A stretch of DNA of 64,000 nt from Clytia hemisphaerica (taxonomy: Eukaryota > Cnidaria > Hydrozoa > Leptothecata > Clytiidae), in NCBI GenBank assembly GCA_902728285.1, contig CACVBU010000152.1, forward strand, positions 248,001 through 312,000, in the 5' to 3' direction. Shown piece by piece: positions 39,601-64,000 of this stretch. The first letter of the stretch is position 1; the number at the start of each line of letters is the position of its first letter. A program made the translations under genes and the position numbers. The notes below the pieces were generated by a model. It saw only the letters and a program-made list of their open reading frames with translations. It did no database searches and was not told where the DNA came from.

Positions 39601-40374
39601 AGCAATTAATTCTTCTTTCATATTTCTCATCTGCCCATTCAAATGGTTGATAACTTTCTCATTTTCTTTGACATTTTCCTCAAGAAGAGCAACCTTCTTT
39701 TCCCCAAGATCAATGTCCTGGTTCAATCTGTTAATCTCAGTAACAATATGCTTGCTTTGGGTTTTCATGCTTTCGTTTGATCTCAAGAGCTCTTCAGTTT
39801 GAAGTTTTGCTTTGGTCAAATCCTCTTTTAGATGAGCAGCTTTTTTTGTAACCATAACTGTTGTAAAGTCATCTTCGCTTTCAGTTATCTCGATGTTGTT
39901 TTCGTCAACCCATGTATTCATGCTGTTGCTTGTTTCAGTCTTACTGCTTCTGTCAGTTTCACTTCTTGGGCTTCCATTGCTACAGACAATGAACGGCTCA
40001 GAATCAGATCGGTTACAAATTTGGAAAGGACAACTTGCTCCATAGACAACTTCAGTTTTGATGTTATAAAAACAAAACTGATAAAACTCATCTGGATTAT
40101 TTGCTGGGAGTTCATTCTCAAGAAATTCAATTTGGAATGATTTATCAGACACAGCTTCAATCAACGTAAAGTTCTTCCGTGTTATGTTTGCCTCTAAATT
40201 ATCCCATCCTACTGGAAATATCGCAACAAAACAGTGCGGTTGTTCTTCGGTATCAATACTAACATTGTCCTTCATTGAAAAATAGCAAGCTACATTTTCA
40301 GTTGGTTTATACCATTCGACAACATTATGAAATATTACAGCACATCCTTCAAATGCTGATGTCCCCTCAGCCAT
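36645..40374 (-). CDS. TAX1BP1: TAX1BP1/CALCOCO-family selective autophagy receptor
   Basis: Three exons, 38425-40374, 37622-37832 and 36645-37084, join in frame to 866 residues (human TAX1BP1 has 789). Residues about 8-120 form a SKICH domain (VIFHNVVEWYKP, AIFPVGWDN, EFYQFCFYN, VYGASCPFQI). An acidic linker follows, with EDDFTTVMV at 168-175. From there to about residue 730 the chain is a Leu/Glu/Lys-rich coiled coil. A Pro-rich linker with a GRGRGRG run precedes a C-terminal zinc finger, CPVCEHRFPEGF with H858 and H862, matching the ubiquitin-binding finger of this family. Known members link ubiquitinated cargo to ATG8 on autophagosomes and restrain innate signalling. The ATG sits in a strong context (AAAATGG). 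It could be orthologous to all three vertebrate genes (TAX1BP1, NDP52 and CALCOCO1), so the symbol marks the family. Confidence 0.88.
37921..38301. mobile_element. 381-bp DNA element with 30-bp perfect TIRs
   Basis: The first 30 bases, starting GGGGCCGTCCACATAGTACG, are the exact reverse complement of the last 30. TTG lies on both sides (37918-37920 and 38302-38304), a possible 3-bp target-site duplication. The interior has further TACGTAC palindromes and C-rich tracts but no coding frame. It sits in the first intron of the TAX1BP1-like gene. Confidence 0.8.
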
Positions 40375-43004: not shown

Positions 43005-43010
43005 TTTATT
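43005..43010 (-). terminator. Likely polyadenylation signal of the UBX-LRR gene
   Basis: AATAAA in the gene's direction, about 140 bases past the proposed stop codon at 43147-43149. Confidence 0.5.
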
Positions 43011-43146: not shown

Positions 43147-43184
43147 CTAGTAATCAGAAATATTTCTGAGTTCTGTCATCTGAT
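43147..43184 (-). CDS. Proposed last exon of the UBX-LRR gene
   Basis: An acceptor at TTTTAAG (or a second AG 12 bases later, in the same frame) leads to QMTELRNISDY and a TAG stop, in phase with the exon ending at 43332. The match is supported only by phase and by the nearby AATAAA. Confidence 0.45.
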
Positions 43185-46100
43185 CTTAAAATACTTCAAA
43201 CCCAAATAATTGCTTATGCTCTATTATTATGTTCGTCGACTGCTATTATGCTTGCCGATGCATAATTGCTCTTGATGATTAATCCTCTTATCACATTCTG
43301 CCTGAGTGAGGGGACAACATAAACAACTTACTTAGCAAAAGTCTGTTGACAGCTTGCATAGTAACATCAGTCCCGTCCAACGTCAATATACTCAATCGTG
43401 GTGCATTTAGATTGATAAGACCTTCATCGTCAATACGGGTGTGACTTAAGTTCAATTTGACGAGATTCAGACATAGAGAAAGTGACGTCAGGAGCTCGTT
43501 ATCGATTTTCGTTCCCGTGAGATCGAGTGTGTGTAATAGTCTAAGCGCTAAAAAGATACAAGTAAAAACGATCGACCTAAATTTAGTAGCGAACCAATAA
43601 ACTGATAACAGGAACAAGATTTGATCACGAATTTCGCATCACTTCACCGACTGAGGAAGGTCCTCAACGATTGCATGGATTTCGTTTCGAATACAACTGA
43701 ATCTCGCTAATTCAAACTTGAACAAAGAATCGAATTTATTGAATTAGCTTGTCGTAAACCACAATAAACTTGAATTAAAAGAGCAAGCATCCACATTGAG
43801 CTGTTCCATTAAATTTCCATAAAAGGGCGAACCTTTCCAAGACAAAAAAATTCTTAAAAATGTGTTGATACTCCCTGGAAAATGGGCGACATTTGCAAAA
43901 CAACTTTGGAGAAATTCTTTTCATACCTTAAAAATGAGGGTGGATGAACTAAAATCAGTCTTTTAGCCCCTGGAAATTTTGGAATAACCTTTTACAGCCT
44001 GGAAAACGAAACAAATATGGAAATTCTTCTCCGATTACCTCCTGAAAATGTTCGTCCACCCCCTGTATGGATATAAAATGGAATGACCCATTTACCGATG
44101 CATTCGGTAACTTACCTTCGAAGATTGGTGTAATGGATGAGGTGACATTTGTGTGGCGAAGATTCAATGTCTCCAAATCACGTAAAACTAAAAGAAAAAC
44201 AGCGACATCTAGAAGTGTGTCCGAAAAAAAAGCGGACACGTTTTATATAAAGTTAAATCCTCAAAACTCATTATCTAAACTGAGCTTACAAAAATTGAAA
44301 TAGGATTAAAATTCTCTGTTCAATCAATAGCTATTTAATTCCCAAGAAGATCGCATGGAATTTGGAGATTGAAATATTAAGTGTTACAAGTAATAAAATT
44401 TTGCATAAATCATGAAAGTGAACTAATTTTTATATAAAGTAAGATCTTTATATAAAAATTAGTTCACTTTTTTGATATTGTGACACACTGCATGAACACC
44501 AAATAACAAAAAAGTGTACCCTGGGTACCAGAGACCAAGTTTTCAAAGAGAAAATATTAACGATTATTCGAGCTGTGATACTTACGGTAACAAAAGTGTG
44601 TTTTATTGAAAAACAACTCAAGAAGCCTTGAGGCGTTAATGTTGAGCGCGGAGAGCCGAGAACTGAGTTATATAAAGGATTTTGAAAAGGAAGAGAAATA
44701 CAAAGATTTATAAAGCCCGAAGGGCTAGATGGCGTACTTTTGCTGAAAAGTGTGCCATGGTTAGGTAGGAAATTCTACCTACAATCAGTGCCATAACATA
44801 TTGGCACCTTTGGCTAATTTACCATTTTTCGAAAATTTCGGGCCTTCAACTTGATTTCATCGATTATTTCGATCTGGGAGGGATTTATTAGTTTCTAGGC
44901 TATATTTCAAGCCCTACTGGACCATTGTTGAACTTTTGGATCCTCAGATCCTAAGGTCGTGAGTCTCAGAGTTAAAACTCTACCCTTCCAACCTGCTTTA
45001 GAGCACTTGCAAATCGATTGTGGTTTCAAAACTTCCCGGTGGATTTCCCTTTTGTGCCAAGTATTTCGTCACCCATTGTAGGTCACCTGACATTACAATA
45101 GAATTTCAGCAACAATATTTTTTTCCGATATTCACTTTTTTTGCCTGCAATGGCTTAAAACACGACATCATCATATAAATCTATGGAGAAATGTTGACTT
45201 TACGTAGAAAGTCACAGGACCGATTTGGGGATCTGTTATTTGCAATTTCGGCACCCATTGAATCTTCCACTCGCTTTACGCGCAAGAGCAAGAAGATTGA
45301 ACGCTTGTCTATAGTGTGGAGGTCGCAGTCAAAATTTCCAAAACCTTAAATATCTAACGGGTTAGGAAGGAAATAAAAAAAACCAACCTTTCAGCTGGAT
45401 GACACCATTGTCGGTAATTTTGGATAGTTGCGTCAAATACAAGTGTTTCAAACTGGAAATGAAGAAAAAAGTGAAGCTTGAGTGGAATGCAAACAAGTCC
45501 GTCCTCACTCTCATTCTCGACCGCATGGAAAAAATTGCAGTTCTACGGAGTTCATTATACATAGTGGTTTTACCGAACTTTAGTCTATTGTTATAGTATT
45601 TTTCATCATAGCCTTTTAGTAGGGGACCAAAACTTAGGATCCGAAGCATCTTTCGCGGGACTCAACCGCATGTGATTGGTTTGATAGTAGATAGGATTTT
45701 GAGACTTTCTTGAGAGGTGGCCCGCGAATTAGGCCTGGCAAAAGTTTTTATGACCAAAAAATTGACGTCGTAGGCAAAACTCCTAACCCCCAAAATGAGT
45801 TAAATATTGAGTCGAATTAAACTAAAATGATTGATACCTTCAGATAAAACATGAAATTCTGAGCAAAAAAAGTATACTACAACAAGTCTTATACTCAAAC
45901 CAACAAAATGTATGGCCATTTAAAGTTCGAAATCTTGTGAAATCTTTTATGTTTTAAACAAAATTTGTCTTCAATCGTACTCTAACTGAGAGAATTTCAA
46001 ACTCCAAAAGCCTGTATTTCTATATGTTTGGGTACACGACTTCGGACCATCTTCGGTCATTACCGAAAGAGCTAACAAGAATGATAATTTTCATCTCTTT

Positions 46101-49100
46101 GCTTTGTACATAGTTAAGCCAAAATATTGTTGTATAATTCCTCAAATCAAACTTATTTTGAAAAAGTAAAAACTGTCATAAAAGTTGGATTGATGATCAA
46201 AACTAAAAATTGGCAATACTAAATGAGTCTGTTTTTATGTTTCTTCTTATAAAAGCAAGATTGGGCTCTTCCAGAAAATTTGCCTTGTTTTAGGGGCAAA
46301 TTTTGCTCTGATTAGGGGTGATTTTGAATGTCCGGGGGGTCAACTGATGCTTGCCCGGGGGGGGGGGGGGGGTAAATTTCCCCAAAATGATATATCCTCC
46401 ACCCCCCACATTCAATTTTTTTTCTGGAAGAGCCCTTTGCGTCATTAAGAAAGATATCTCGAGTTTCATGAAATCACAAATGAACAGGTCTAGATCGGTT
46501 GACATTCGAAGAGACGGAACGAGTGGAAAAAGTTTGCGTTCTGTCACGCTCAATCTCATATTTTTGTTTAGAACAACATCGGATCTTCTTGGTCACCAAC
46601 GGGTTCAAAATAATATAAATCAAAGGGTCAGATGTGTATCCAAAACCGAACAGAAGTAAACTGATTTGTCTGGCGTATGTGATTTTAGAAGATGTTATCA
46701 AGTAATTTGTCATCGATAAAAATGAAGCAGTCACTTGGAAAAGTAAACTAGTCAAAATAATGAAAAAGGGAGCCATAAAGCGTGCTTTGTTTTTGGTTAT
46801 GAAAGGGTTATTCTTGCGAGTTTTTGTTTTCATTTGACGGTATTTGACGTAAAGGTAGGTGTACACTACGATTGAATTTGCAAGGAATATAGCATCTGTG
46901 GCGAAGAAAAGGAAGAATGCGAATCGGTCAACATCATTGATATTTGAAGCAGTTTGAGATATAATCACAAGGGTTAAAGCAAACACTAAAGTGAAACCCC
47001 AACACACTATAATAATCATTTTATTAACTCGCGATGTGACCAGGGACTTGTATTTCAAGTGTAGATAGACCTCTAAGAAGCGGTCGAACGCGATATGATG
47101 CATCGTGAGTGTATACTGCAAAGCGACGGCGAATCGAAGCAGATGTTCAATAATGAGCGAAACGCTACCGAGCTGGATATGATGTAGAGCTAATGCAAAC
47201 TTGAAAATCCAAATGATTAAAAATAAGGTCTCCGTGGCGCACAAACTAAACATGATGGTTCTCTGGTTGCCAGTATTCTTTTGTTTCCGTAGCAACCAGA
47301 GGTAATAGAAAGCGATCATTTGCATCCCAAGTGCTGTGGCGTATATGAAGAGTAGTATGGTATCGAAAGTGGTGTCCTCGAGCTCTGAATATTGTTCGTG
47401 TTGCCCATCTCCCATCATTCTTTGCGAAAAAGTTTCTCGGTTGTGTTTTAAGGTCAACGAACCTTTTGTGAATCGAGCAGTTTAATCTTTCGAGTTTGAT
47501 ATAATGACAAACCAAGAAAGTGTCCAAAAAAGCACATGTACAATTCCGTGCCCAAAATAACAAGTTTGAAGCCTTTTTAAATTCGATAAAAACTTGACAA
47601 TTCCCTGACTCCAAAGGAGCATTAAAATTTTGTCTTGAGTAGTTTTAGAAGTAAAAAAAGACCTATTTGCTTTCTTCGTTCAAATTTTTGTTTAGAATTG
47701 ATGTAAATTTTATTGTGAAAGTTCACTATTAAATAAAGAAATGGTTCTTTTAAGTTAACACAGTTTAGATGAGATTTTACTAAAGCTCACAGGAAGGGTA
47801 CGAAAGCGATCGAATTAATTGGTTTACTATCGTATAGCTGTGTTGTATTTATAATAATCTCGTAAGCAAGTACACCGTGGATTTCTTATACAAGACACTT
47901 ATTAAAAAAAATCATAATTAAAATTCGGCATCTTGTGATGACAGAGTAGGAAAAGAACTTTCTTATGATACCATGCAGAGAAAATAGAATGACAACTGAA
48001 GGAAATTTGATGTTTATCCATTTTGGGAATGGAAACTATTTGAAGATAAAAAAGGAGAAGATAAGAATCGAAAAGGAAATACAATGCGAAATTGAGACAC
48101 CCGTATAGCATGTATAATCAATAGAAATCGAGGAAATAATTTACTGGACTTGGGAATTTGAGAAAGATGTTAAGTGATCATTTTACGATATTGGGTCAAT
48201 AACTATTCACACTTTTCAAATTTCGACTTCAACAAAACACCCGCAAGACACTTTAAAATAGAGTCTACACGCTTTTTTTATAAGAATACACTTTATAAGA
48301 ATGTCCATGATGAAAATAGCCAAAAAATTAAGAATAATGCTAAGAATTTCACCATCATGGAATTTTGCTACTCAACCTAAGAATGCCATTTTTAGAGCAT
48401 TTTCAATTATAAATTGTCAATTACCCCCCCCAAGTAAGGTTCGCTCCTTTCACAAAAATGCCAGTTTATGCTTGAGACGTATTTACTAAATGTTTTAATC
48501 TGGTCTGAATTAGGATCCTAACCTAAGTATGCTGTAAGAATATTTTAGGATGATTTTCGCAAAGAAGTTAAGAATATCCATGATGAAATCGATTTACACC
48601 ATTCTTATAAAAAATAGAGTCTACGGTGCTAAGCCTAGAGGTCTTGAAAATCAAAACAATCAACATTCCATCAAATTTCACTCTTTAAACACTCATCTAC
48701 ATTATGAAGAAGAATTAAAAAAACTAAAAGTGAAAGTTTGACGATTTAGTTATCACAAAAGAAAAACACCATTTTAGACTCGCAAACGTTACAAAACGAG
48801 GAAAAAATTAGACATACAACAAACATTAATTACTTCATTCCTGGGAGGTTCCAAAACAATCAAGCAAAATTTGAAGAAGTCAAAACAGAGGGATATATTA
48901 AGAAATCTCAAGTTTCTTCTTTGAATTCTTTTGTTTGCAAAATAAACGAGCAGAACAGCAGGATGTAAATTTTGTTCATAATTTCGAGATATTTTTTTGG
49001 TTTTCCTAATCAACTACTCTTCTCTGGCTTATTGTTATTGGTTTTTCTGATAACAAATTAATGCAGTTTCTAAATAAATCTGAAATCTCCTTTTTTATAA

Positions 49101-52100
49101 AGGAGATTCAAATTCAAGACTAGATTACAAATAAACCACTAATAAAACCAAAGATAGCGTCAGGTTGGAAGGAATCCTTATAGCTTATGGCTCTCCAAAC
49201 CTTTTGAAAAAGGCTTTAGAGTTTCACTATAACGTTAAACAAATAAAAAACAAAGATTGAGGACCTGGTACGAAAAGAAATGATTAGTGACTTTACCTTA
49301 ACTTCTAAATTAGACGGTGGCAAAACTTGTATTGTATCGAGCGCAACGAACGCTTAACGAGCTCCTCAAAGAAAAAATAGACAGAACATTGTACGAAAAT
49401 ATGTACCTTTTTACTTTACGTATGCTTGGTATACAGCCATCATCTAGATGAACGAAATTGGTCAAATCTAACGCTGTCAAAGGGAAGTCTTCAATAACTT
49501 TGATACTTTCATTAGTGACGTACATTCGATCAGGGAAACTGAATCGCACCAGTCTTTTTGCTAAACAAAGAAAATGAAAAATAGAATTAAGCTGAGCGAG
49601 ATGTTGAAGTGGGACACATTTTATCTTTCAAGTAAAACCAACCTTTCCTATGAAAACTAAATTTCCACGTCTAGTGTTAAGCCTAGTGAGAATTACTTTA
49701 TCAACTTTTAAGAATTACTTTATTAGAATTTTACTTTACCATAGATGATTGATGCACAGAACTAATGAGTAAATATAAAGATTCCCGGACAATTCCCCCC
49801 TGGTGAATTCCCCCCCCGGTGAATTCCCCCCCCAGTAAATCCCCCCTTGGTGAATCCCCCCCGGAAAATTCCCACCCGGTGAATTCCCCCCTGGTGAACT
49901 AAAAAATCATGTAATTTGAAATAAGCGATTTTACTATTTACTAGTCATAGCTTTCACTAAATGCCCACGCAGAAGATCATGTCATGCACTTATAAAGCTT
50001 TTAATGCTTTAAAGATTAAAGCATTAAAAATAATCAGGAATAATTGATTGATTTAATTATTGAATGATTGATTAATTGATTGAGGCATATGCTTGAAAAA
50101 AAAATTATATTCCATTAACACAATACTTGAAGAATTTATGCAGCTTGATAATTTGATGAAATTCAAGGAAAAGCTTCTCAACAATTTATTTTAAAACTTA
50201 TGGTATCATTAGTTTACTGGTTTTCACATCTCCTGTTTGTTTTTTTCTCCCAGTTTCTTTCTTACAGCAATATATGTCATGATTATTATTCACAATAGAC
50301 CTTTTCTGATAATGCCGCAGACATCTTAGATTGTAGGCAAAATATATAGCGGTGAATAGACCTTTTTTTAACAAGAGGCAGCCATTTTGAATAATTATGT
50401 ACTCCAGCATAAAAACAATGATACAGCCATGCATAATTTTTAAAATATGCATAACACAGTAATTATGCATGGCTGTATCACTGTTTTTATGCTGGAGTAC
50501 ATAATTATTCAACATGGCTGCCTCTTTAAAAAAGGTCTATAAATCAACAAGGTAACCAATCAGAAATAGCCTGAAATAGCTTGCTTTTTTCATTGGCAGC
50601 TATATTTCAACACTTCTCTATTGCTACTTTGCCTATAAAACAATAGTCAAGAAAATACTACTTATAAAATTTATCAAAAAGTTCTGCGCCATCTTAAATT
50701 GGGTGAAATAGAAACCAATCCTAGTTAAGGCCCGGGCTCCTCTTGTGTACGCTGTGATTGCACTTCGCAAGCAAAATCTTCTATGTTGTTGGTCAAAAGA
50801 AAAATAAACGAATGCCATTGTGGTCTATTCAGACTTACAGTCGAGAAAAGTTGAAATGCGCTTTAGTTTTTTTTTCAAGTGCATAGTACTTTTTCATGAT
50901 GTGATGCAATCTTTTCTCCAAGCTGAAAGGATCGAAGCCATTAAGATGATCGCAGCGCAGATAATGAAGAGACGTGCCTCCAGGAAGCTAGACTTTTTGA
51001 GTTTATAGCTATATACTTTCACTTTATTGTGTTTCCGAATGACTGTCTGTGTATCTAGTCTAACCACCGTTAAATGCCTTCGGGAAGGTCCCTCCTAACT
51101 TGGAAAGCCAGAATTGGAGCTATTTCACCAAACCACTGGAGCATATAGGTTATTTTAGAAAAAGTTAAATATGCGCATGTAAAGTTAAACGAATGTTAAA
51201 ACAGTGAATACACTCTAAGTGAGGTAAATCCAAAAGAAAAAGTTTGTTTACATTGATTGACATTCAACATTCATTCAACCACTTTTGGATTCAACTTTAC
51301 ATATGGCCATATGCATACATTCAACATTTTTGAACTTTGCCGGTATCTTGTTTTACTAAGTTAAGAAGGACTTTCTTTCTCTTTGTTATCGCTCCCCCAG
51401 TCAGACTTCTGATGAGTTTGAGGTTTTCTCTCGTAAATGGGAGGAGACAATTATAAACATTAATAATTTTTCTCCGACTGCTACAATTTTTCTTGGGGAT
51501 TTTAATGTCAAGAATTCTGACTGGTGGGGCGGTGACGTCACTGATCCTGGTGGTAGAGATATTCAAAATCTAGCTACCCAGCATGGTCTGCGTCAATTAA
51601 TTGATGGACCTACTCACCTCCTACAAAATTCTTCTTCTTGCATCGATCTAATTTTCTCATCAGCAGATCATTTGGTCTTGGATTCTGGTATCCTTCCCTC
51701 TTTGCACCCTAAATGCCATCACCAGATAACCTTTTGCAAATTAAATTTTAAAATCCCTTTAGCTCCATCTTATGAACGTAAAATTTGGGACTTTTCCAGA
51801 GCAAACCCCATTCCTATTCGGAGGGCATTAGACATGGTAGACTGGGATGTATGTTTTGAGGGTCTTGATGTCGACGGGAAGGTTTCTCTTATGACTGAAA
51901 CTATAATCAATATCATGTCAAATTTCGTGCCAAATAAGGTCATAACCGTCAGGAACAAGGATGCAGTATGGATGACGGCTGGGATAAAGAGAGCCCTACT
52001 TGAAAAATCTAAAGTCTATAAGCGGTATGTCAAAAATGGGAGGAGGGTAGAAGATCTTGAAACCCTCCATGAACATCAGTCTAGGTGTAGAAGGGTAGTC

Positions 52101-54533
52101 AGAGATGCAAAAAATTCTTATTTTTCTCGTTTAGCAACTAATTTTAGTGATCCAAATCTGGGAACGAAAAAATACTGGTCCATTTTAAATCAATTTCTTC
52201 ATAAGAGGAAGACGCCAAGGATTCCCCCTGTTCGAGACTCCAGCAATAATCTCATTGCTGATGTTCCAACAAAAACAAATATGTTTAACAAATTTTTTGC
52301 TAATCAGTGCTCTCTCATAGACACTGATAGTGTTTTGCCACAACAAAGCTTTGCTACAAATCTTGAAATAAACAATATTGCTCTTGATGAAGCAAAAATT
52401 TTAGCCCTTATACGCGCACTTACATCTAACAAAGCGCATGGTTGGGATGACATCTCCATACAGATGATTAAGATCTGTGATGAATCCTTGGTTAAACCTC
52501 TTATGAAAGTTTATCAATTTTCCCTAGATTCTTGTGTTTTTCCATCGAATTGGAAAAAAGCAAATGTTGTCCCTGTTTATAAAAACAAAGGGGACAAGAG
52601 TGTGTTAAAAAACTACAGGCCAGTATCTCTTCTACCTATTTTTGGTAAAATCTTTGAAAAATGCATCTTTGACTCTGTTTACACCTATTTTGAAAACAAC
52701 AATCTCTTTACTAATTCCCAGTCTGGTTTCCGCAAGGGTGACTCTTGTGTGTCCCAGCTTTTGTCCATAACGCACGACATCCTGGTAGGTTTCGATTCAA
52801 ATCCACCTCTAGATACTCGCGGAGTATTTCTTGATATTTCCAAAGCTTTTGACAGAGTTTGGCATGATGGGCTGATTTTCAAACTTAAGTTGTATGGTGT
52901 GTCCGGCCCCCTTCTTTCATTACTTCAAAATTTTCTCTCAGGTAGGTTGCAGCGGGTGGTTCTTGATGGCCAAGCTTCCAATTGGACGGAGGTCTTGGCC
53001 GGTGTACCTCAAGGCTCTATTCTAGGACCGCTCTTCTTTCTGATATATATTAACGACCTCCCTGAAGGAATTATTTCCATGATCAAAATTTTTGCTGATG
53101 ACTCGTCAATATTCTCCCTTATCCTTGATCATATTCGCTGTTCAAACGAATTGAACAGTGACATGCAGAAGGTTAGTGAGTGGGCTCATCAATGGAAAAT
53201 GACCTTCAACCCTGATCCTTCTAAACAGGCTGTTGAAGTGTACTTCACTCGGAGGATAAATCTACCTGATCTTCCAGAAATTTATTTTAACAACGCAGCC
53301 ATTGCTCGACAAGATCATCAAAAACATCTTGGTCTCATTCTTGATCATGAGCTGGCTTTTGACCGTCATCTTGATGAAAAAATTAAAAAAGCCAATCAAG
53401 GTATTGGTCTTATTCGTCGGCTTCGTGCATTCCTACCTAGGGATTCACTAGTCACGATATTTAAAACCCATATTAGACCACACCTAGATTATGGAGATGT
53501 CGTGTATGATCGTCCAGGTAATTCCACTTTTTCTGAAAAACTAGAATCAGTTCAATATGATGCTTGTCTTGCAATAACTGGATGTTTCAGAGGAACTTCC
53601 AGAGAAAAAATTTATCTTGAGTTAGGTCTTGAAAGCCTGTCAGACAGGCGACTAAGTCGAAGACTAATTTACTTTTATAAAATAATCAATGGCTTTGCAC
53701 CTGCTTATCTCTCAAATGTTCTTCCTCCCCAAAGAGGGGAGGAGGAACGTAGGGCAGGGCGGAGGATACAACCACCATTTGAGGCACCATTTTGTAGGAC
53801 TGAACGTTACCGTGCCTCCTTTTTCCCCTTTTGCATCAATGAATGGAATAACCTGGGCGAAAATATACGAAATCTTCCTTCTATTTCATTATTCAAACAA
53901 GCGATTCTTAAATTTCTCAGACCTTGCGCTAACTCAGTTTTCAAGGCTAGTGACAACGATGGCGTGGTTCTACTTAACCGATTAAGGGTTGGTTTCAGTC
54001 ATCTTCGGGACCACAAATTTAGACATAACTTTGCAGACACAATCGACCCATTCTGCAACTGTCGAAGTAATTCTGTTGAAACAACACAACATTTCCTGAT
54101 GCATTGCTCTGATTACTCCAATAACAGACTTGTTATGTTCGACAGCCTTCTTCAACTTGACATAACCTTGTTTCCATTTAATCCCAAAACATTGTGTAGA
54201 ATACTTCTTTATGGCGACCCCGATTTTAGCATTATCCAAAATCATGATATATTGAGTATAACGATAAAATTTATCTGTGATACAAGCCGTTTTGGGGGAC
54301 CGTTATTTTAGTCTACTCCAACTGCTCTCCTAGCTCTTTTAGTTTTTGTTTTTTATTTCTGTTAGTATTTATCCTCTGTAGTTTGTTTTCTTTTTTCCAT
54401 TTATTAGTTAATTTAATAGTTTATTGTTAGCTTAGTAGGGTTCCTACCTCCTGGCGGTATGATCTGGTGGTCCTTTTGCGGGAGGTTAGGAACCTTTAGT
54501 TTTGTACTATTTGTTCGTGTTACCTATATATAG

Positions 54534-54568
<35 letters not shown>

Positions 54569-57500
54569 ACTTTCTCGAGTTACGACCATATTATGGTATT
54601 TAAAGCTCAAGAAGCTCTATAAGCAATAAAGAATAAAGCTAGTTATTAATATAATAGCAGACAAAGATAAATTATAGTTTGAACAAAAAATATCAAATAT
54701 CAAATGTACGTACATTAAAAAACTTGAGCAAATTTCTTTAAAGATTCCAGAAAAAGAATTGAAATCATTGCTGAAATGAACTTCTGACTAAATTACAGTA
54801 TTTAGTATTCAGTTTCAAAGACAAGAAACAAAATTTGACATACAAAACACTTTTTCCAGTCACGAATGAATCAGCTCAACATCATAACCAGTCTGCCATT
54901 TTGTTTGTTTTGATTTGCACAAGTAATATTGTAATTCGTGTTATATCATACACTGTTATAAATAATTTGCATTTATAACACTCGCTTCAGCTTTTCAAAG
55001 CTAAATCAAAACTAATAATTTGTAATACGTAATAATGGTAATAGCATATAACGTAATATGAAAATACGCATACTACTAAAAACCGAACATTTACGGAAGA
55101 GACTAACTACGGGGATGCTTGCGCGACAAAACAAAAAAACAACAAAATTTCGAGATTCCAGTCCAATATCTATGCGTGAAACTATGAGTGCCTCCTCGTC
55201 GCTGCGCTCCTGCGGGGGCAATTATATAAAAATATGTGTAGACGACTATCATGTAAAAATCTTTAATTGTTTTCTCAGAATAAAAAAAAATGGGCGTTGT
55301 GATTCTTAAAACTTTGTAGACTATCATGTAAGAATCCTTGACCCTGAAATCGGAGGTTTGTTTTGAAAGTTTTAAATTAGTCTCTCTAAGGGTCGGAAAA
55401 TTCAGGATTTTTAGGAAATTTTTTGATTTCCAGAGAAAAAATTGTAATAAAGTCTCTCTAAGGGTATGACTTTTTTCAAAAATCGAAAAAAAAATTCAAA
55501 AAGTCTCTCTAAGGGTCACCTTTTCAGCAAAAATCAGTCTCTCTAAGGGTCGGATTTCGGAGGTCCCGTCCGCACATACCTCTCATTTGCCAACCCTAGT
55601 ACCCCCCGAGGTTACAGTCCATGATTTCGAAACTTAAAAGCACATATGAAAATATATGGGTGGGAATTCACCAGGGGGGAATTCACCGGGTGGGAATTTT
55701 CCGCGGGGGAATTCACCAGTGGGGAATTGTCCGGACACCAAATATAAACTTGACGTAAGTTTCAAATAGCAATAATGATACAGGTTTAAACAGGGGGTAC
55801 ACAGTTAGTGTACTGGACCAGTGCCCAAAATGTGCACTTTGACTCAGAAAATTTTTTTGGAACCACCACACCTTTGAAAACTTGTAATTTACGTTCAAAA
55901 TAGGTTGACCACCCCTTACAGTCTGTTATACCACCCACCCAGCAGTGGTCCCTATAACTTACTACCGATCCCCCTCTTGGTTTAAAGACTAAAATCAAAA
56001 TTAACTCAAATTAATTTGCTGTGGTTTAGAAAGGTTCAAAGAAGCTATATTTTACCATGTAGATGAGACAGCCCTTCATGTGTAATATGTGTCGAGTGAA
56101 GTTCCAAAGCGTGAAGATGTTTCAATGCAGCTACAAATGTCATATCGTTGTCACTGATGGAAGTCTTCTTGACGCTTAGAGATCGTAGGTTGCTCATCTT
56201 CTCCAGAAAGCTTAATGATGTTACCTAAGAAGTGAATGAAACAGTTGCCAGTATAAAATAGTCGTTGTTTGAAAAATGACGTAATTGCTGAAGTCAGCTA
56301 AAATTCAAGGACCACCCAAAAAAGTTTGTTTCTATCAAATTTAATAGAGGACCTTTCAATGACCTTTCAGCTCATTGGGGCTAAACAAATATCAAAATGT
56401 TTGAAGAAATGAAGAAATCACCAGGTATTCTACTAAGGGACCAGTAAGTGTGCAAAATTCAACTCAAACCCACAATTTATGGACGTGGCAAATGTGGCTA
56501 GTAATCAAATCTATTTTCAACATTATAAATCCTTCCCCAAATTGAGTGGGGGGGGGCGAGGGGTGACTAATGTGGGGGGGGGCGAGGGGTGACTAATGGG
56601 GCTTATTCTCATTACATTCTGTCCATTACTACCATGCTTGCGGCTAATATTTTCTGCCTTAAAATTCTAGCCTTGTTCAAGCTAAATACTCATCTCGGTC
56701 CATGAAAAAAATTACGCCCGGGTATTCACTAAAGTAGCACTTCATAGAAAAGGAAGAGAACTTCTTTTTTCATCACAAAAACCTTTACATAGATTACTCA
56801 CCTTACTCTCGTCAACTGATAAAGCGGTAATCGACGGAAAATCTGCAAACAAAAAGAACGCATCAGCTTGATAGTATTTCATAGAAAAGAATCTAAATGG
56901 GTAACAAAAGACAGGAAAAACTAAACAAGGAATAAAAATAAATATGATAAAAAGCTAACCTTCTTCGAGATCGAGAGCAGCATTAGTGATGTTGCACCTG
57001 TTGAGCGATAGCTCTTCCAAGTCTTTGGCGATCGCCATACGAAGGAAGTTTCGAGTGTATTCATCTTTCAGCTATCGAAGGAAAAATGAAAGATTTAAAA
57101 ATGAATTGTATACCACTAAAAGGCCAAAAAAAATCGGAGTGGTTTGAGTTTTGCTAAGTTAAACCATAAATTAAGAACTATCGAATAGATTTACCGTCTC
57201 AGCCTCTTTTTACTTAATATCATACATTTTTCTTGCGGTTTCGCCAAAATTCAGATTTTAAATTTTTCGAACCGACCAACTTTTGTGAACATGGCCAATC
57301 GCGAAAATCAATTCATGCGAAGAGTAATCTTAAGAAAATCGACTCCCTTTTCAGCAGCCACTTCAAAAGCAGATCCCGATTGACCGATGGCGTCAAATTT
57401 GTTAATACAAAATATGGACCGGTACAGTAGCGTAGACAAGAGGGGCGCAAAATTTGTGAAGTAGAACATATTTTTATAACACATTAATTATCTCTTCATA

Positions 57501-60500
57501 TTACGAATAGATAATAATAGCATAATAGCCCTCCTACACAATTTTTGCGCCTCTCTTGTCTACGCTACTGCGGTAAAACAAGCGGTCGAGACCTATCAAA
57601 ATATTTGAAGAATGAAGAATGATATGAAACAAAAATTGATCAATTCCAGACCACTTTGAAAACCATACTAAGATCAGTTCTAGTTACTAATGATTGTAAA
57701 AAGATCAACGTTCAACAGTGCCAATTCTCATGCCCCGGGGTTTCACTCAGGAAAAATAAAGCAAGGGGGCTGGTTAGGATTCTGTCAAAGCCTGAGCCCT
57801 TAGATTTTCGTGATTACTGTAAGAATAAAAAATCGTGCACGAATTTGTGTTTCAATAAAAAATGGATTGGAAGGGATGTGATGCAAAAAAGAAGAACTCG
57901 GTGAAATTTTCATCCGACACGCTAAAGCTCTGAAGGTCGGGAAAATTTTCAACATCTGGAAGGTTTACATTACGGAATTTTGCACGACTGCGTCAAGAAT
58001 TTTTCAACGGAGGTCTGGTAACCCATCCTTCGTATTCGGGGATTGGCGGGTCCAACCGAAATATTTATAGGTTTACGCACAAGGGCTGTTGAACCTGACT
58101 GGGGGTGGGGCACATCAAAGGCCGACTATCATTTCTCTCCGATGGGAAATTGGTCCGCTCCTTTAGGGCTTTAGCGTGGGCGGCCGCCAATCCGCCATGC
58201 CATCGGAATATCAGATAACCATTAGGAAAGCGAACGTTCGATTTGCGTAAGGAACCGCCTCTACAGATTCAAATGTCTGCTAACATAATGATGGAAATTA
58301 CGTAAATTAACAAAGTATGAAAAACAAGCACAATGCATACTGGACCTACCGAATGAAAAATATATAGAATGGAAATAGAAAAGGAATTAAAATAAGAAAC
58401 GGCATATTTCCGGCATTTTCGGCCTGAAAGAATTTTTTCTCGAAAATCGGAATCGGCCTTATTTTGGACATCTTTTGATATCAAAGACATTAACTTGGAC
58501 AAAGAAAAATGATAAAATTACATACCTTAGTCCGACTGAGGTTCAACGACTTTAACCTGGATAGACCTAGAAAAAGAATGCAAAAAGTATTTGAGACAAA
58601 TTGATCAAACTTTTCAACATTGGAAAGTCAGGGGAAAAAAATTAACTTTTTGAGTTATGGAACTGACTGACTCGGTCGGTCAAAAGTTATGAAGTAAAAT
58701 CAGAATAACACTCTTTCAAAAAAAGAAACAAAAAAGTCATGAATGGCCAATCGCCATTTTTAGCTTTCTCAAAAAGTCAATACAAAATCTGTACACTTTT
58801 CTATGAAACACCCGGTACAATGAACACCGTGCTTACCTATAATAACCCAAACAACCCAACAATTACTGTCGAACGTGCTAACCGCACTGGCTCAACTTCA
58901 GTATTTTTGAAATCATTCGTAGGCCCAATTGTAAACTTAATGGCTTAAGAAAAATTATAGCATTTTGGGTTTTAGCCTCGTTTAGGCTAAAAACTCGTCC
59001 CCAGGCCCCAAAAATCAAAATTTTGAAAAAATGAAAAAAACACCCCCAGGGATTTGCCCAAGGATCAAGTGTGCAAAATTTCAACCAAATCGGACAATTT
59101 TTGAAGTCTCCAGCCTGCCCCAAAGTTTTAGCCTCGTTTTGGCGAAAAACTCGTCCCCAGGCCCCAAAAATTAAAATTTTGAAAAAATGAAAAAAACACC
59201 CCCAGGGATTTGCCCAAGGATCAAGTGTGCAAAATTTCAGCCAAATCGGACCATTTTTGAAGTCTCCAGCCTGCCCCAAAGTTTTGAGGTGACAGACAGA
59301 CAGACATTCTCAGATTCTAGCTCAACTGAAGTTGAGAAAACGTATCAAAATTACAAGAAATTATAGGATAGTGCTGCGGTTTTGCGCTCTATCCACGAAA
59401 GACTTCATGTAAAGCCTTTTTTTTAGCCGGCCAGTTTGGTTTGTCTCTCAAATCGGATGATTTTTCATGTATGAATTCCAAAAAAAGGGATAAAAACTAA
59501 CGAAATTTCGAAGAAAAAATTCATGGATTCCCGATAACGAAACAATTTCAGAATTCCGAAATACCGAAGGAATTTTACCTGAGCTCCTAATTCCGAAGAA
59601 AAAAGGGTAGATTTCCGCTATTCCGAAAAGCCGTACGCCTCCACTAAATTGCTTGAAATTGAGTAATCGGATTTTTAGCGGATAAAGATAAATATACAAA
59701 CCTCTAGTGGCGGTGAGAAAACTACCAACGATAGCTTCACAGTCTGATAAATTGAGGTACGTTATACGTGGAATATCTGAAAATGAAGGAAAATCAACAT
59801 AAAGTTACCCTCAGGTGTATAATGGGACTTTTCAAATTCTGTTAGACGAAGGGTTAGGGTCCTCTTTTGCGTGGGGGTTTGCAAATGTTTTTCTATAGTT
59901 TGAAATAAGGCGATTGTGAGCAACATAAGGGCCCTATTTTATGGTAGTCGAACTATTTTCAAAAGTTTAATAAACGTTGTCTTTTCCTGGTCAAACGACG
60001 AAAATGATTCCTGACCTTGTACCAAAATCTTTTAATATCTGGAAGTTGTTTTGATCTTTTACATCAAAAGTACAATAAAAAAACACAATTCTCATTAATA
60101 GTTAAATTTCCCATGCAAAAGATTGAAAACCCTTACTTTTGACGAGAGTTTCAACGAGACGGTCAGAGACACAAGTCACCGACTTCAAGCTGATCCTTCG
60201 TAAATTTTGATGTGATCTAGAAAAAAAAACATACCGAGTTTCAAACAGTCACTCTAGACACTTGAAAGATACATTCTAAGAGGTCAGGTGTTTGGTTAAA
60301 GTCTTTTTGTTTGAAAATTGCTGCTTGCTTCCTTATAAAATATCGAAACACGAAGAACTTACCCACTCTCCGGGGGGGGGGGGGGTACTTAGGCAAAAAT
60401 GGGTGCTGGGTATGTGCGGACGGTAAGGGTCGTTTTTTTCGTCTTCCAAAGTCTCTCCAAGGGTTGAAAAAATCAGTCTCTCTAAGGGTCGAAAATTCAC

Positions 60501-63500
60501 GATTTTTAGGATTTTTTTTTCGATTTCGAGAGGGAAAATTGTAAAAACGTCTTTCTACTCTAAGAGTCACCTTTTAAGCAAAAATCCGTCTCTTTAAAGG
60601 CCAGTCTTCGGAGGTCCCGTCCGCACATACCCCAGTGCCCTCTTGGGCCCACTCTTCGTTTTCAAATCACTTTACTAATCACTTGGTGACTTTTCAATAC
60701 TCATAATTTTATTAAGTTGTGTGATTGTTTTATGCATGGCATAGAAACGTCTCCATAACTCGACTCACGCAAAGGGAAAATAAAGTTTGTTAGAGTTATT
60801 GAAAATCTGTGTTATAAAGACTTTTTTTAGCATCTGAAGAACCAGAAGATTTCTTCGAGTTTTAAGGAGAGATTCGAGTTATGTCAGATTAATTGTAACA
60901 AGAAAGTAAAAAAATTGAGATACCTTACTTTAAAGCATATAACAAATCAACTGATGCCAATCGACAAAAATCCAAATTGATTTCTTTTAGCTTACTGGAA
61001 AACAGAAAATAAAGATTTTCAACGTAAAAACTTGATTTTCCAATGTAGGAGAATTTTCCTGGAAAAGTAAAGGGACGGAATCAAGAAAGAATACAATAGA
61101 AGAGAAAGGGTACCCAATCGAATTTCTACTATTGAACTCGCTATGTGTTTCGAGTTAGAAAATCAGAATTCTCCAATTATATTAAATCCTTCTCTATAAG
61201 GCAAAGAAAATATCACTTGGCCTCTCATTAATAAATAAATTAGGTAGAATAACTGCGAAATACCATGGCTGTAAAATATTCAACAGCTCTGTGGTAAGAT
61301 TGTTGCTTCTTTGTAGCGCTTTAATGATCAAGTCCGCCGTGGTTGAGTTCAAGTATTGAATGTTTTCAACGATGTGTTTTTCTTTCTTTATGAGTTGTTG
61401 AGCGATAAAAACAGCTGAAGATTTTTGTAAGGACGTGATACGTCTTGATGAAGCGTGGTAATCGTGATTGCCTTCCTGCGCTTGTTCTGTAGAATAGAAG
61501 GGATTATTGAAGCCTGATTCGAAGACCTCTATACTTCCTAAATACTATTATGGTATTGTCATTCCCAGCGAAGTGGAATGGGCCATTTCTATTTTTTTTG
61601 ACAAGTGAAAGAATTTGCTAAAAAAAGATGCAAGTTGAAAATGGCGTAAACAAAGAATATAAAGATGCTAATAAAGAGTGACTGAATTTTTGCTTCATTA
61701 ATTTTTGCACATTCAATCGACTCTCGCTTATTTGAACTTTTATTATTTAAATCTTTCTATAAGTTGAAGTTACTCTCAGTTCCCGTCAGGGAGAAATCCT
61801 CTTAAAATACTCTCTGTTATTCGAACAAATAATACTCCCGGTTCGAGTTCGAATTAGCGAGAGTCAACTTTGCATTACAGTTAGTCCTTGGTGATTGAAT
61901 ATCAAACTGGGTTAACACTGGTAGAAACAATATCTAGTACTAGCCGGTACCCGGCGTCGCACGCCGGTTAAGCTTTAGCTGAACGCACTAAAAGTCCTTT
62001 GGATGTTGAAGCTGGCTTTAAAAAAACGATCAAATGAATAAAATGATATCTTCAAAGTTTGACTCTAACCCTCCCCCGGAGATCTTTTTCTCGCTTCGCT
62101 CGCATTAAATACGCCGTCCAGTTTTCGACAATTTGAGAAAATGTCATGGTAAAGAGGAGTGAAATGGTAAAATGACAATTCTTTATGAAGAAGCGGGAAA
62201 GCCACAAAGAATATAGTGCAACTTTGTTTTTATCAGATCTAAAAAGATAAATAAGTCAATTCTAAATTGTTTTTTTTAAACCCTTGTCATAACTTTTCGA
62301 ATTTAAACATGTAAAATAGCGTACACAGTTAAAGAGATGGACTACTACTTTCTTCTCTTGCTTTTTATCGCCCTTTGAATGCTGTTATTGTTCGACAAAC
62401 TTTTTAAATTTATGTTTTGATGGGTTGATTTACATTTGAAATGTTCTTTTCTATAAAAGAAACTTGTTTTGTTTTGAAAAGAATTCGAAAGTCATTAATA
62501 AATACGATCGTTAAATACATTCGAAAACATTTCAAACAAAAGAAAAGAGAAAAACAGGATCAGGCAAAGCTGGGCAGAAATTAAAATTACTAAATGTAGA
62601 TGGGCTTTAAATTTCAAAACAAAGGCTGAATAAAGTCTAAACCAGGCCCTATCCGATCTGTCAATCAAAACAAACTTATCGAGAACAAAACATTGCTTGC
62701 GAAATCTTTTGCAAATGGCGCGAATCCAATAGAACAAATTTGTGAAGCAAGAGACTAAAAGTCATAATTCTAAAACACAAACAAAGCGAAAACGAAAGTG
62801 GTGACACACAGACACACAAAGCACCGCTATTAATATATAGAAATGACGATAAAAGCACTCTTACCTGTTAATCTCCGTTGAATGGCTTGTTGTATGAGAT
62901 CGGGGTTTGCAATATCTTCATCTGGTTCTTCGTCATCACTAGGATTGCCAACATCCATCATTGCATCGTCCTCGATGTGATTGTCCAAATCACCTTCGGA
63001 GAAAGAATAAAATGTAAAGTTGCTCAATCGATCAATCTCAGTCAAAATGATTGTTATTTGAATTTAATTATAGAACATTTTTTGGCAAATTGCCCGTTTC
63101 AAATTCAGATTTAAAGCCTTGCCCTTCGAGAAAGAAATATAATAAACACTCACCCATGAGCACAGAATCTGGAAGTAAACTTTAACGAAAAAACATTGTT
63201 TGAGAATGACCCTAAAAGCGTACCTTGCAACAGCCTTGATCCTAGACATGGTCGTACAGCAGGAGTAGCCACCATAGGCTCCTCAGCTTGACCAACTGCT
63301 TGGCTTTCTGGTGATAAAAGTTCTATTGATGGTTCTTCAGGATTCGGTGATTGTTGATTTGGTGTCTCATTTAAACCCGATGCATTTTGTGGTTGTGAAG
63401 CTGTTATGTTTGGAGAATCTGAGTTTTGTTCATTTGATGAGGGTTGTTGATATGGTTGGAGAATCAGTCGACAAGAAGGACATAATCCTAGCTCTTGAAG

Positions 63501-64000
63501 TGTCTTTGTGTAATGATCTTCAGTAAATGTTTTCCTTGGAAATGTCTAATAAATGAGTGAAAATTGGGTTTTGCCAAATTTTCTGTATCTGTTGAGGATA
63601 TCCATTTTTGTTCCACAGCCCCCTGGATTTCTGGCCTAAAAATATATAGTCTCTCTGGATATCCGACATTAAAAAAATCACCCCCTGGATGTCCAAGTGG
63701 ATGGAAGGGTTGAGGATGCATTTTGTTCCGTACTGGATTTGGATTGTACTTGGATTTCCTCTCTAATCCATTTACCTGAGCCCCTGGATATCCTCTCTTA
63801 TAAAGTTCTACCTCCTGGATATCCAGATAGTATTTAACCCCCTGGTCTTATCTTCAACTGGGGAGGCTCGGACTATGTCTGGAAAAGCCCACTGCAAAGA
63901 AAAATACCCGATGGAGTCCTAATTTTAGTATATATTTCTTAGAGAATGTAAAGTTAAAATGAGGTTACCTGAACGAACGAATATTTGACATTATCGCCGG
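43147..64000 (-). CDS. UBX-domain leucine-rich-repeat protein (5' end off window)
   Basis: Sixteen exons join in frame: 63969-64000 (partial), 63224-63545, 62865-62993, 61264-61486, 60929-60994, 60137-60216, 59702-59776, 58526-58566, 56960-57071, 56802-56842, 56056-56224, 49407-49560, 45388-45452, 44116-44187, 43332-43547 and, less surely, 43147-43184. About 611 residues are visible. The first two exons encode the C-terminal half of a UBX domain (TFPRKTFTEDHY, LQELGLCPS), including the FPR loop that contacts the p97/VCP N domain in known UBX proteins. A Ser/Pro/Gln-rich then acidic linker follows, then a helical segment (SSAVFIAQQLIKKEKHIV). After that come at least a dozen leucine-rich repeats such as LETLNLRHTNVT and LVKLNLSHTRIDDEGL. 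UBX predicts p97 recruitment and LRRs predict target binding; the role is inference. I recognise no named orthologue. Confidence 0.85.
43332..60994 (-). CDS. Leucine-rich-repeat array of the UBX-LRR gene
   Basis: Exons from 60994 down to 43332 encode successive LRRs of about 23-26 residues: LKEINLDFCRLA, LRRISLKSVTC, ITYLNLSDCE, LKSLNLSRTK, LEELSLNRCNIT, LRSLSVKKTSISD, LHALELHSTHIT, LKHLYLTQLSKITD, LETLNLRHTNVT, LHTLDLTGTKID, LVKLNLSHTRID and LSILTLDGTDVT. Introns often cut within repeats at varied phases, so the array is not built of one repeat per exon. The ID-N/D-GL pattern resembles the cysteine-containing/RI-like LRR types found in F-box and ubiquitin-ligase substrate receptors. Confidence 0.88.
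44415..44470. repeat. Perfect 25-bp hairpin with 6-base loop
   Basis: AAAGTGAACTAATTTTTATA plus TAAAG (44415-44439) is exactly reverse-complemented at 44446-44470 across the loop TAAGAT. It is intronic in the UBX-LRR gene and would fold in the pre-mRNA. Confidence 0.9.
46263..46435. mobile_element. Foldback MITE with GGGCTCTTCCAGAAAA ends
   Basis: GGGCTCTTCCAGAAAA at the left is inverted as TTTTCTGGAAGAGCCC at the right. The interior holds a 16-18 base G run and C-rich tracts. It lies directly after the GPCR stop codon, so it probably falls in the GPCR 3' UTR. Confidence 0.7.
46474..47418 (-). CDS. Intronless rhodopsin-like orphan GPCR
   Basis: A single-exon frame of 314 residues, starting at the MM pair at 47418. 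An in-frame TAA lies upstream with no earlier ATG. Seven hydrophobic helices are visible at about 18-42, 54-78, 86-118, 132-154, 166-192, 213-241 and 250-274. Helix 3 ends in FDRF (112-114 DRF) in place of DRY, and helix 7 has DPLIY (264-268) in place of NPxxY. CC at 281-282 after helix 7 is a likely palmitoylation site. The usual extracellular disulfide cysteines of helix 3 and loop 2 are absent, as is the helix-2 Asp. I recall DRFLEVY-type motifs in cnidarian orphan receptors. The ligand cannot be predicted. The gene is nested in the UBX-LRR intron between exons 49407 and 45452, same strand. Confidence 0.88.
   Translation of the reverse strand: MMGDGQHEQYSELEDTTFDTILLFIYATALGMQMIAFYYLWLLRKQKNTGNQRTIMFSLCATETLFLIIWIFKFALALHHIQLGSVSLIIEHLLRFAVALQYTLTMHHIAFDRFLEVYLHLKYKSLVTSRVNKMIIIVCWGFTLVFALTLVIISQTASNINDVDRFAFFLFFATDAIFLANSIVVYTYLYVKYRQMKTKTRKNNPFITKNKARFMAPFFIILTSLLFQVTASFLSMTNYLITSSKITYARQISLLLFGFGYTSDPLIYIILNPLVTKKIRCCSKQKYEIERDRTQTFSTRSVSSNVNRSRPVHL
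49780..49899. repeat. Array of GGTGAATTCCCCCC-type repeats, left copy
   Basis: After CCGGACAATTCCCC come about six degenerate units of the form GGTGAATTCCCCCC. The array is the inverted counterpart of 55656-55739, and AAATATAAA flanks the outer end (49771-49779). Confidence 0.75.
50359..50538. mobile_element. Long hairpin MITE, TA-flanked, GACCTTTT family
   Basis: The arms are about 80 bases and nearly perfect: GACCTTTTTTTAACAAGAGG, then CATAATTATG-type and GTACTCCAGCATAAAAACA sequence, all inverted on the right. TA lies at both ends (50357-50358 and 50539-50540). The terminus resembles that at 8443-8640. Confidence 0.75.
51377..54311 (+). CDS. LINE endonuclease/reverse transcriptase, 5'-truncated open frame
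   Basis: The frame is open from the first base of the insertion (about 977 codons); the first ATG at 51672 is not a true start. It holds the remaining endonuclease blocks (FLGDFNV, CIDLIFSS, KCHHQITF) and a reverse transcriptase with [53 protein letters not shown]-type motif B and the catalytic IFADDSS near 53090. The C-terminal region has a Cys/His motif (CNCRS, ETTQHFLMHC). The RT motifs place it in the Jockey/CR1/L2 assemblage; the clade is not resolved by eye. Only the N-terminal endonuclease part, and any ORF1, are missing. Confidence 0.9.
54537..54564 (+). repeat. Poly(A) tail of the LINE
   Basis: About 30 A residues, interrupted by nothing, preceded by TATATATAGAT and followed directly by the 11-bp target-site duplication. 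Confidence 0.9.
55379..55607. repeat. GTATGTGCGGACGG foldback repeat, copy B (left end missing)
   Basis: Four copies of AGTCTCTCTAAGGGT occur in about 180 bases. The right end CCGTCCGCACATAC followed by CCAACCCTAGTACCCCCC is the same as in copy A. The left inverted end was not found. Confidence 0.7.
55656..55739. repeat. Array of GGGGGGAATTCACC-type repeats, right inverted copy
   Basis: Four units of GGGGAATTCACC form end in GGGGAATTGTCCGG. This is the reverse complement of the start of the array at 49780. AAATATAAA follows at 55740-55748. Confidence 0.75.
56547..56598. repeat. Two tandem 26-bp G-rich units
   Basis: TGGGGGGGGGCGAGGGGTGA plus CTAATG is repeated twice without change. It is intronic in the UBX-LRR gene. 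Confidence 0.8.
57425..57570. mobile_element. MITE with CAGTAGYGTAGAC ends and 5-bp TSD, copy 2
   Basis: This 146-base foldback has ends CAGTAGCGTAGACAAGAGG and CTCTCTTGTCTACGCTACTG. CGGTA is duplicated on both sides (57420-57424 and 57571-57575). It is the same family as 13172-13324 and lies in an intron of the UBX-LRR gene. Confidence 0.8.
58971..59285. repeat. Two tandem copies of a 156-bp unit
   Basis: The unit, containing GCCTCGTTT, ACTCGTCCCCAGGCCCC and CACCCCCAGGGATTTGCCCA, starts near 58975 and again at 59131 with few differences. An ACAGACAGACAGACA simple repeat follows. The long minus-strand frame across it is a by-product of the duplication. Confidence 0.85.
60372..60643. mobile_element. 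GTATGTGCGGACGG foldback repeat, copy C
   Basis: It starts with a G run then GTACTTAGGCAAAAATGGG, TATGTGCGGACGG, and ends CCGTCCGCACATACCCC. It carries about four degenerate TCTCTCTAAGGGTC motifs. It is intronic in the UBX-LRR gene. Confidence 0.7.
61714..61872. mobile_element. pogo/Tigger-like MITE, copy B
   Basis: The ends CAATCGACTCTCGCTTATTT and, inverted, CAAAGTTGACTCTCGCTAAT are a pair, 159 bases apart. The interior TTCCCGTCAGGGAGAAA matches copy A at 994-1151. TA flanks are not preserved. Confidence 0.6.
63224..64000 (-). CDS. UBX-domain exons of the UBX-LRR gene
   Basis: Exon 63969-64000 (GDNVKYSFVQ) continues in phase 0 into 63224-63545 (TFPRKTFTEDHY, TLQELGLCPS, LILQP). This is the second half of a UBX beta-grasp fold: strand 3, the FPR loop, strand 4, the short helix and strand 5. 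The N-terminal half must be in exons beyond 64000. After residue Pro of LILQP the exon becomes Pro/Ser/Asn/Gln-rich and disordered. The next exon (62865-62993) is strongly acidic (DDEEPDEDIANPD). Confidence 0.85.
63597..63845. repeat. Scattered CCCCTGGATATCC motifs
   Basis: About eight variants of CCCCTGGATATCC occur in 250 bases with irregular spacing, in the intron between the two UBX exons. No unit length is constant. Confidence 0.5.

What the first reader, a model, noticed from the sequence alone, without database searches (positions are those of the whole stretch)
43147..64000. UBX domain fused to a long LRR array in one gene
Sixteen exons join in phase from a UBX domain with an intact FPR loop, through an acidic linker, into at least a dozen LRRs. 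Known UBX proteins recruit p97/VCP through the FPR loop, and LRRs commonly select substrates. A UBX-LRR protein would look like a substrate-selecting p97 adaptor. I do not recall a vertebrate protein with this layout, though I could not search for one.
Basis: partly seen in the sequence, partly recalled or inferred. Interest (0 to 1): 0.75.

Follow-up and report, generated by a model that had tools for sequence, protein, structure and literature searches.

The report
UBA-UBX protein with LRR tail
One gene appears to encode a protein that can dock on the cell's protein-unfolding machine p97 near one end and carries a 15-repeat recognition arm at the other, a layout not seen in the p97 helper proteins that could be checked here.

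Summary
The model, about 920 aa, has a weak N-terminal UBA, a charged stretch, a full UBX domain (E 1.6e-15), a linker, an acidic stretch and 15 LRRs. So it is a UBA-UBX protein with an LRR tail. Another UBX gene of the genome reads to a stop right after UBX. The FPR loop is intact, but the strand-1 arginine of the 'R...FPR' signature is asparagine, so p97 binding is likely, not assured. The UBX exon has a top-ranked donor and no stop after UBX, which argues against two genes; there are no transcripts, and some splice sites are weak. No eukaryotic protein collection could be searched, so rarity is untested; the paper listings seen showed no UBX-LRR protein. Most likely a client-selecting p97 adaptor: a new variant of a known kind.

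The parts
63969..64000 (-). exon 7 (in-window part; it begins at extended 64097 in L007): end of the first half of UBX, GDNVKYSFVQ
   Evidence: UBX E 1.6e-15 on the joined domain
63224..63545 (-). exon 8: second half of UBX with the FPR loop, then about 77 codons of P/Q/S/N/T/E-rich linker (residues 329-405) with no stop
   Evidence: donor rank 5 of 1381 GT
63154..63168 (-). exon 9: 15-nt phase-neutral microexon (could be skipped without a frame change); low confidence
   Evidence: donor rank 236 of 1381, acceptor 110 of 1472
62865..62993 (-). exon 10: acidic stretch, 14 D/E and no K/R in residues 411-444
   Evidence: donor rank 8 of 1381, acceptor 129 of 1472
61264..61537 (-). exon 11: linker and lead-in to the LRRs
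   Evidence: acceptor weak, rank 293 of 1472 AG
60929..60994 (-). exon 12: LRR 1
60137..60216 (-). exon 13: LRR 1 end, LRR 2
59702..59776 (-). exon 14: LRR 3
58526..58566 (-). exon 15: LRR 3 end, LRR 4 start
56960..57071 (-). exon 16: LRR 4 end, LRR 5
56802..56842 (-). exon 17: LRR 5 end, LRR 6 start
56056..56224 (-). exon 18: LRRs 6-8
49407..49560 (-). exon 19: LRRs 9-10
45388..45452 (-). exon 20: LRR 11
44116..44187 (-). exon 21: LRR 12
43291..43547 (-). exon 22: LRRs 13-15 and stop TGA; or it ends at 43332 at a GTAAGT donor

Best explanation
It is one gene for a UBA-UBX type adaptor of the p97/VCP unfoldase that carries a C-terminal LRR solenoid nearest in sequence to those of F-box/LRR proteins. 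Proposed working: the UBX FPR loop inserts in the p97 N domain; the N-terminal UBA binds ubiquitin on the client; the charged stretch (coiled-coil-like by composition) positions or dimerises the adaptor; the LRR arm, on a flexible and acidic tether, binds a particular client or partner, so that p97 is brought to it. Shown here: gene anatomy, UBX and LRR domains by sequence score, the FPR letters. Inferred: a single transcript, UBA function (below Pfam's cut-off), p97 binding, client choice by the LRRs.
For: In-phase GT-AG chain of 22 exons from ATG to stop. UBX E 1.6e-15; solved relatives by sequence are UBXN4 (2dzk, 2kxj) and UBXD7 (5x3p; 1wj4, listed as KIAA0794 and taken as UBXD7 from recall). 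LRRs by Pfam, by spacing, and FBXL17, FBXL2 and SKP2 as best solved matches of the first repeats. MGF-type UBA at the very N-terminus, weak (PF22562 E 0.005, PF00627 E 0.011; best chain USP5 UBA E 0.21). Exon 8 runs past UBX with no stop into a donor ranked 5 of 1381. PMC5389986 (passages read) describes UBA-UBX proteins as substrate-recruiting p97 cofactors and R...FPR as the contact; PMC9377798 (passages read) shows that a coiled coil beside UBX is needed in FAF1 and FAF2.
Against: No transcripts. Strand-1 Arg of R...FPR is Asn here. UBA below Pfam cut-off. The microexon donor (236 of 1381) and exon 11 acceptor (293 of 1472) are weak. Poly(A)-like hexamers at 63068 and 61744 lie between the UBX and LRR exons. 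UBXN1, the known protein nearest in layout, bound p97-UFD1-NPL4 only weakly and did not stimulate it in vitro (PMC9377798). The top single solved match of the in-window protein is an internalin, not an F-box protein. No homologue of the joined architecture was found; the three answered collection scans cover prokaryote and viral contigs only.
Confidence: 0.68

Rival explanations
1. Two neighbouring genes on one strand: a UBA-UBX gene ending just after exon 8 (stop about 63150) and an LRR gene starting at the methionines of exon 10.
For: Poly(A)-like ATTAAA at 63068 and AATAAA at 61744; two Met codons in exon 10; weak microexon donor and exon 11 acceptor; another UBX gene of this genome reads to a stop right after UBX (L001).
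Against: Exon 8 stays open about 77 codons past the UBX match and meets a donor ranked 5 of 1381; the microexon and exon 10 continue in phase, and exon 8 to exon 10 is also in phase without the microexon. Exon 8 tail and exon 10 codon scores exceed 95% of intron windows, weak support. No other pattern as strong as the microexon's (strong acceptor, 6-60 bases, GTRAGT) in 24,280 intron bases.
Confidence: 0.17
2. One gene, but the UBX domain no longer recruits p97 (strand-1 Arg lost); the protein works as an LRR scaffold with a ubiquitin-like fold.
For: Asn in place of the Arg that precedes the turn in UBXN4 and UBXD7.
Against: The FPR loop, the part that inserts in the N-domain pocket (PMC5389986), is intact and the UBX score is high.
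Confidence: 0.12
3. Assembly artefact joining unrelated exons.
For: Assembly unnamed, not checked with reads.
Against: No N in window or L007; 417 Mb in 951 contigs; phases agree across the joins.
Confidence: 0.03

Closest known systems
UBXN1 / SAKS1
   Same: Listed as a UBA-UBX protein (SAKS1, PMC5389986); UBA, charged middle, UBX in that order (order recalled).
   Different: The human protein ends right after UBX (recalled); here a linker, acidic stretch and 15 LRRs follow. A separate gene of this genome (C321, L001) reads to a stop right after UBX and fits UBXN1 better; its upstream exons could not be fetched.
UBXN4 (UBXD2, erasin)
   Same: Best solved UBX match (2dzk, E 2.9e-10).
   Different: No UBA and a membrane segment after UBX (recalled); strand-1 Arg present there, Asn here.
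UBXN7 (UBXD7), FAF1, FAF2
   Same: UBA-UBX adaptors of p97; UBXD7 UBX is a solved match (5x3p).
   Different: No LRRs (recalled); a UAS domain in FAF1 (legend) and, from recall, UAS and UIM in UBXD7.
FBXL2, FBXL17, SKP2
   Same: Closest solved LRR chains for the first repeats.
   Different: No F-box among the Pfam matches; UBX instead.
CUL2 receptors LRR1, ZYG11 family
   Same: LRR client receptors (recalled); the lead-in SLQKSSAVFI resembles a BC-box in shape (motif recalled).
   Different: The motif's usual Cys is Ser; no Pfam match for the lead-in.

Membership tests
UBX-domain p97 cofactors | UBX domain | tested here: met
   PF00789 57.5 bits on the excised domain, 52 on the whole protein, cut-off 21, profile 2-81 of 82
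UBX-domain p97 cofactors | FPR in the loop that inserts in the p97 N domain | tested here: met
   TFPRKTF aligned with FPR of UBXN4 and UBXD7
UBX-domain p97 cofactors | Arg of the R...FPR signature in strand 1 | tested here: not met
   IQVNFPDR against IQFRLPDG (UBXN4) and LMLRYPDG (UBXD7); L001 has FRLPDG. Which Arg is meant is recall of FAF1 numbering
UBX-domain p97 cofactors | Binds p97 | not testable with these tools
   needs protein
UBA-UBX subgroup | UBA domain | tested here: inconclusive
   MGF motif, E 0.005-0.018, below Pfam cut-offs; USP5 UBA E 0.21; no UBA listed when the whole protein was scanned
UBXN1 orthologue | Protein ends at UBX (recalled) | tested here: not met
   open frame continues; another gene ends there
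F-box/LRR proteins | F-box | tested here: not met
   no F-box among Pfam matches of the full protein at E up to 5
F-box/LRR proteins | LRR array of the F-box/LRR kind | tested here: inconclusive
   15 repeats of 22-27 residues; FBXL17/FBXL2 best solved matches of the first repeats, but an internalin is top for the in-window protein
Cullin-2 BC-box LRR receptors | BC-box with Cys (recalled) | tested here: inconclusive
   by eye SLQKSSAVFI, Ser at the Cys place; no Pfam match

The most novel reading that the evidence does not exclude
A class of p97 adaptor absent from mammals in which one polypeptide carries ubiquitin sensing (UBA), p97 docking (UBX) and its own client-recognition solenoid (LRR), doing alone what mammals split between an E3 substrate receptor such as LRR1 or an FBXL and a separate UBX adaptor; possibly with a degenerate BC-box in the LRR lead-in.
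Probability: 0.3. Interest if true: 0.65.

Novelty: new variant of a known kind. Interest (0 to 1): 0.45.

Why it matters
UBA-UBX adaptors are described as reading ubiquitin on the client. A natural UBX-LRR adaptor would be a direct case of client choice built into a p97 cofactor, and a testable model for how E3-type recognition and unfolding can be coupled in one protein.

Tried and rejected
TONSL (a UBL before LRRs) was my first guess and was dropped: Pfam calls UBX, the FPR loop is there, and no ankyrin or TPR family was listed. A UIM in the acidic exon: no Pfam match. The UBX exon at C928 (L006), with a similar exon break, was looked at for LRR exons nearby in two fetched stretches (L009, L010); none were seen by eye among minus-strand frames of 35 codons or more, but LRR exons are often shorter, so this is not a clean negative. 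A stretch near 57.93 kb was left out of the model because its phase did not fit. Relatives: genome contigs twice and viral contigs once, none; these hold prokaryotes and viruses. Rfam and tRNA scans of the window: 0 matches each. Structure: exon 22 alone gave mean pLDDT 46 and no usable fold.

Papers. Three searches with UBX and LRR terms returned 0 papers. One search returned 1 (a Culex transcriptome paper, listing only, not opened). One search (UBXN1 and LRR) found 104 and listed 15; one search found 165 and listed 20; one search found 680 and listed 12; one search found 1. Only two papers were opened, by passages: PMC5389986 and PMC9377798. So the listings seen show no UBX-LRR protein; most of the matching papers were not looked at.

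Not answered: the own-genome search with the spliced protein (for retrocopies or paralogues) and with the GFP family (to place the organism), and the fetch of the other UBX genes in full. The machine was busy in 25 tries. One search's request was answered. only waited; 61 and 69 also waited after computing.

Full report
What is there. The window is G000:C110:248001-312000 of an unnamed 417 Mb, 951-contig assembly. The gene is on the minus strand. Sixteen coding exons within the window join with GT-AG sites and agreeing phases into 633 residues. The contig continues, and the next 10 kb (L007) hold six more exons on the same strand, all in phase, starting at an ATG at extended coordinate 70336. 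Total 921 residues: UBA-like 1-42, charged stretch 88-215 (85 of 128 residues D/E/K/R/Q, against 297 of 921 overall), UBX 247-328, P/Q/S/N/T/E linker (43 of 68 residues in 338-405), acidic 411-444 (14 D/E, 0 K/R), a lead-in, and 15 LRRs from 547 to about 911. No coiled-coil predictor was run; 'coiled-coil-like' rests on composition.

Domains. The excised complete UBX scores 57.5 bits against a cut-off of 21; the in-window half alone scored 34.6 bits as a 63-residue piece. Four distinct solved chains match it at E up to 1, two named UBX domain-containing protein 2 and 4 and two of the UBXD7 kind. LRR_4 scores 55.1 bits against 27 on the in-window protein and 50.2 on the full one, where LRR_6 and LRR_8 stay below their cut-offs. 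The LRR spacing is 22-27 residues for 15 repeats; none of 2000 shuffles went beyond 8. The first repeats match FBXL17, FBXL2 and SKP2 best among solved chains, while the in-window protein's top single match is an internalin, followed by FBXL2, so the F-box/LRR kinship is moderate. The UBA is weak: the MGF motif is there, E-values 0.005 to 0.018, below Pfam cut-offs, and best chain USP5 at E 0.21.

p97 docking. PMC5389986 (passages read) says that UBX domains bind the p97 N domain through an R...FPR signature. The FPR is present. In the alignments the residue before the turn (IQFRLPDG in UBXN4; LMLRYPDG in UBXD7) is Asn in this protein (IQVNFPDR); the genome's UBX gene at C321 keeps FRLPDG. That this is the signature Arg is my recall of FAF1. 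Binding is therefore likely but could be weaker. PMC9377798 (passages read) reports that UBXN1 itself bound p97-UFD1-NPL4 weakly and did not stimulate it, whereas FAF1, FAF2 and UBXN7 did.

One gene or two. For one gene: exon 8 reads on about 77 codons past the UBX match without a stop and ends at a donor ranked 5 of 1381 GT dinucleotides of the gene span; exon 10's donor ranks 8 of 1381 (weights trained without junctions after exons 7-11). A 15-base microexon between them fits the phase, and no pattern as strong by plain consensus (strong acceptor, 6-60 bases, GTRAGT) occurs in 24,280 intron bases (that exon 9 itself meets the criteria was read by eye). The exon 8 tail and exon 10 have codon scores (7.8, 7.2) above 95% of 300 stop-free intron windows each (1.0, 1.4), but 10 of 23 segments of the gene score below zero on the same independent table, so this is weak support. 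For two genes: poly(A)-like hexamers at 63068 and 61744, Met codons in exon 10, and weak sites by the gene's own weights: microexon donor 236 of 1381, acceptors of exons 9, 10 and 11 at 110, 129 and 293 of 1472. I put one gene at about 0.80, the sum of the readings above that assume it.

Relation to the other UBX genes. The Pfam search of the genome gave six UBX places including the window's own; only the best candidates are scored and split domains can be missed. The best, C321 (L001), reads to a stop a few codons after UBX, shares with the window gene an exon start at the same place in UBX (FRLPDG there, VNFPDR here; read by eye) and 36% identity (25 of 70). It fits UBXN1 by its ending (recalled), so the window gene looks like a separate, related UBA-UBX gene with an LRR tail. 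Its upstream exons could not be fetched.

Three-prime end. The alternative is the in-frame TGA at 43291. The acceptor of the former is poor in pyrimidines by eye; AATAAA at 43010 suits both.

Novelty. Three paper searches with UBX-LRR terms gave 0 papers, one gave a single paper that I did not open, and of 104 papers with UBXN1 and LRR I saw 15 in a listing. The library holds open papers only, and no eukaryotic protein collection was on hand, so automatic annotations of the same layout in other animals may well exist. I rate it a new variant of a known kind.

Noticed in passing
46477-47418 (-): Intronless rhodopsin-type GPCR-like frame (7tm_1 30.3 bits, cut-off 30.5) nested in the intron between exons 19 and 20, same strand.
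   Followed up: partly
38368-40374 (-): SKICH-domain frame with a long charged tail (PF17751 E 3e-12), CALCOCO/TAX1BP1-like by recall, just downstream of the UBX-LRR gene.
   Followed up: partly
51360-54311 (+) and 24975-27509 (+): Two long open frames that read like LINE reverse transcriptases (by eye); the first lies in the intron between exons 18 and 19 of the gene, antisense.
   Followed up: no
L007 about 3220-5396 (+): Antisense frames in the intron between exons 2 and 3 that look like a class C GPCR with Cys-rich linker (by eye).
   Followed up: no
6870-7307 and 10706-11140 (-): Fibronectin type III exons; the frame 2498-2944 gave no family. A long Ser-rich frame 13912-15516 (-) near them gives a Xin-repeat score of 27.9 bits with no single stretch passing, probably chance.
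   Followed up: partly
about 49790-49900 and 55660-55735: Similar short gaattcccc-rich repeats in two introns (by eye).
   Followed up: no
L006 (G000:C928:1635804-1635917): Separate UBX C-terminal half exon with FPR, closer by eye to the FAF/UBXD7 kind.
   Followed up: partly
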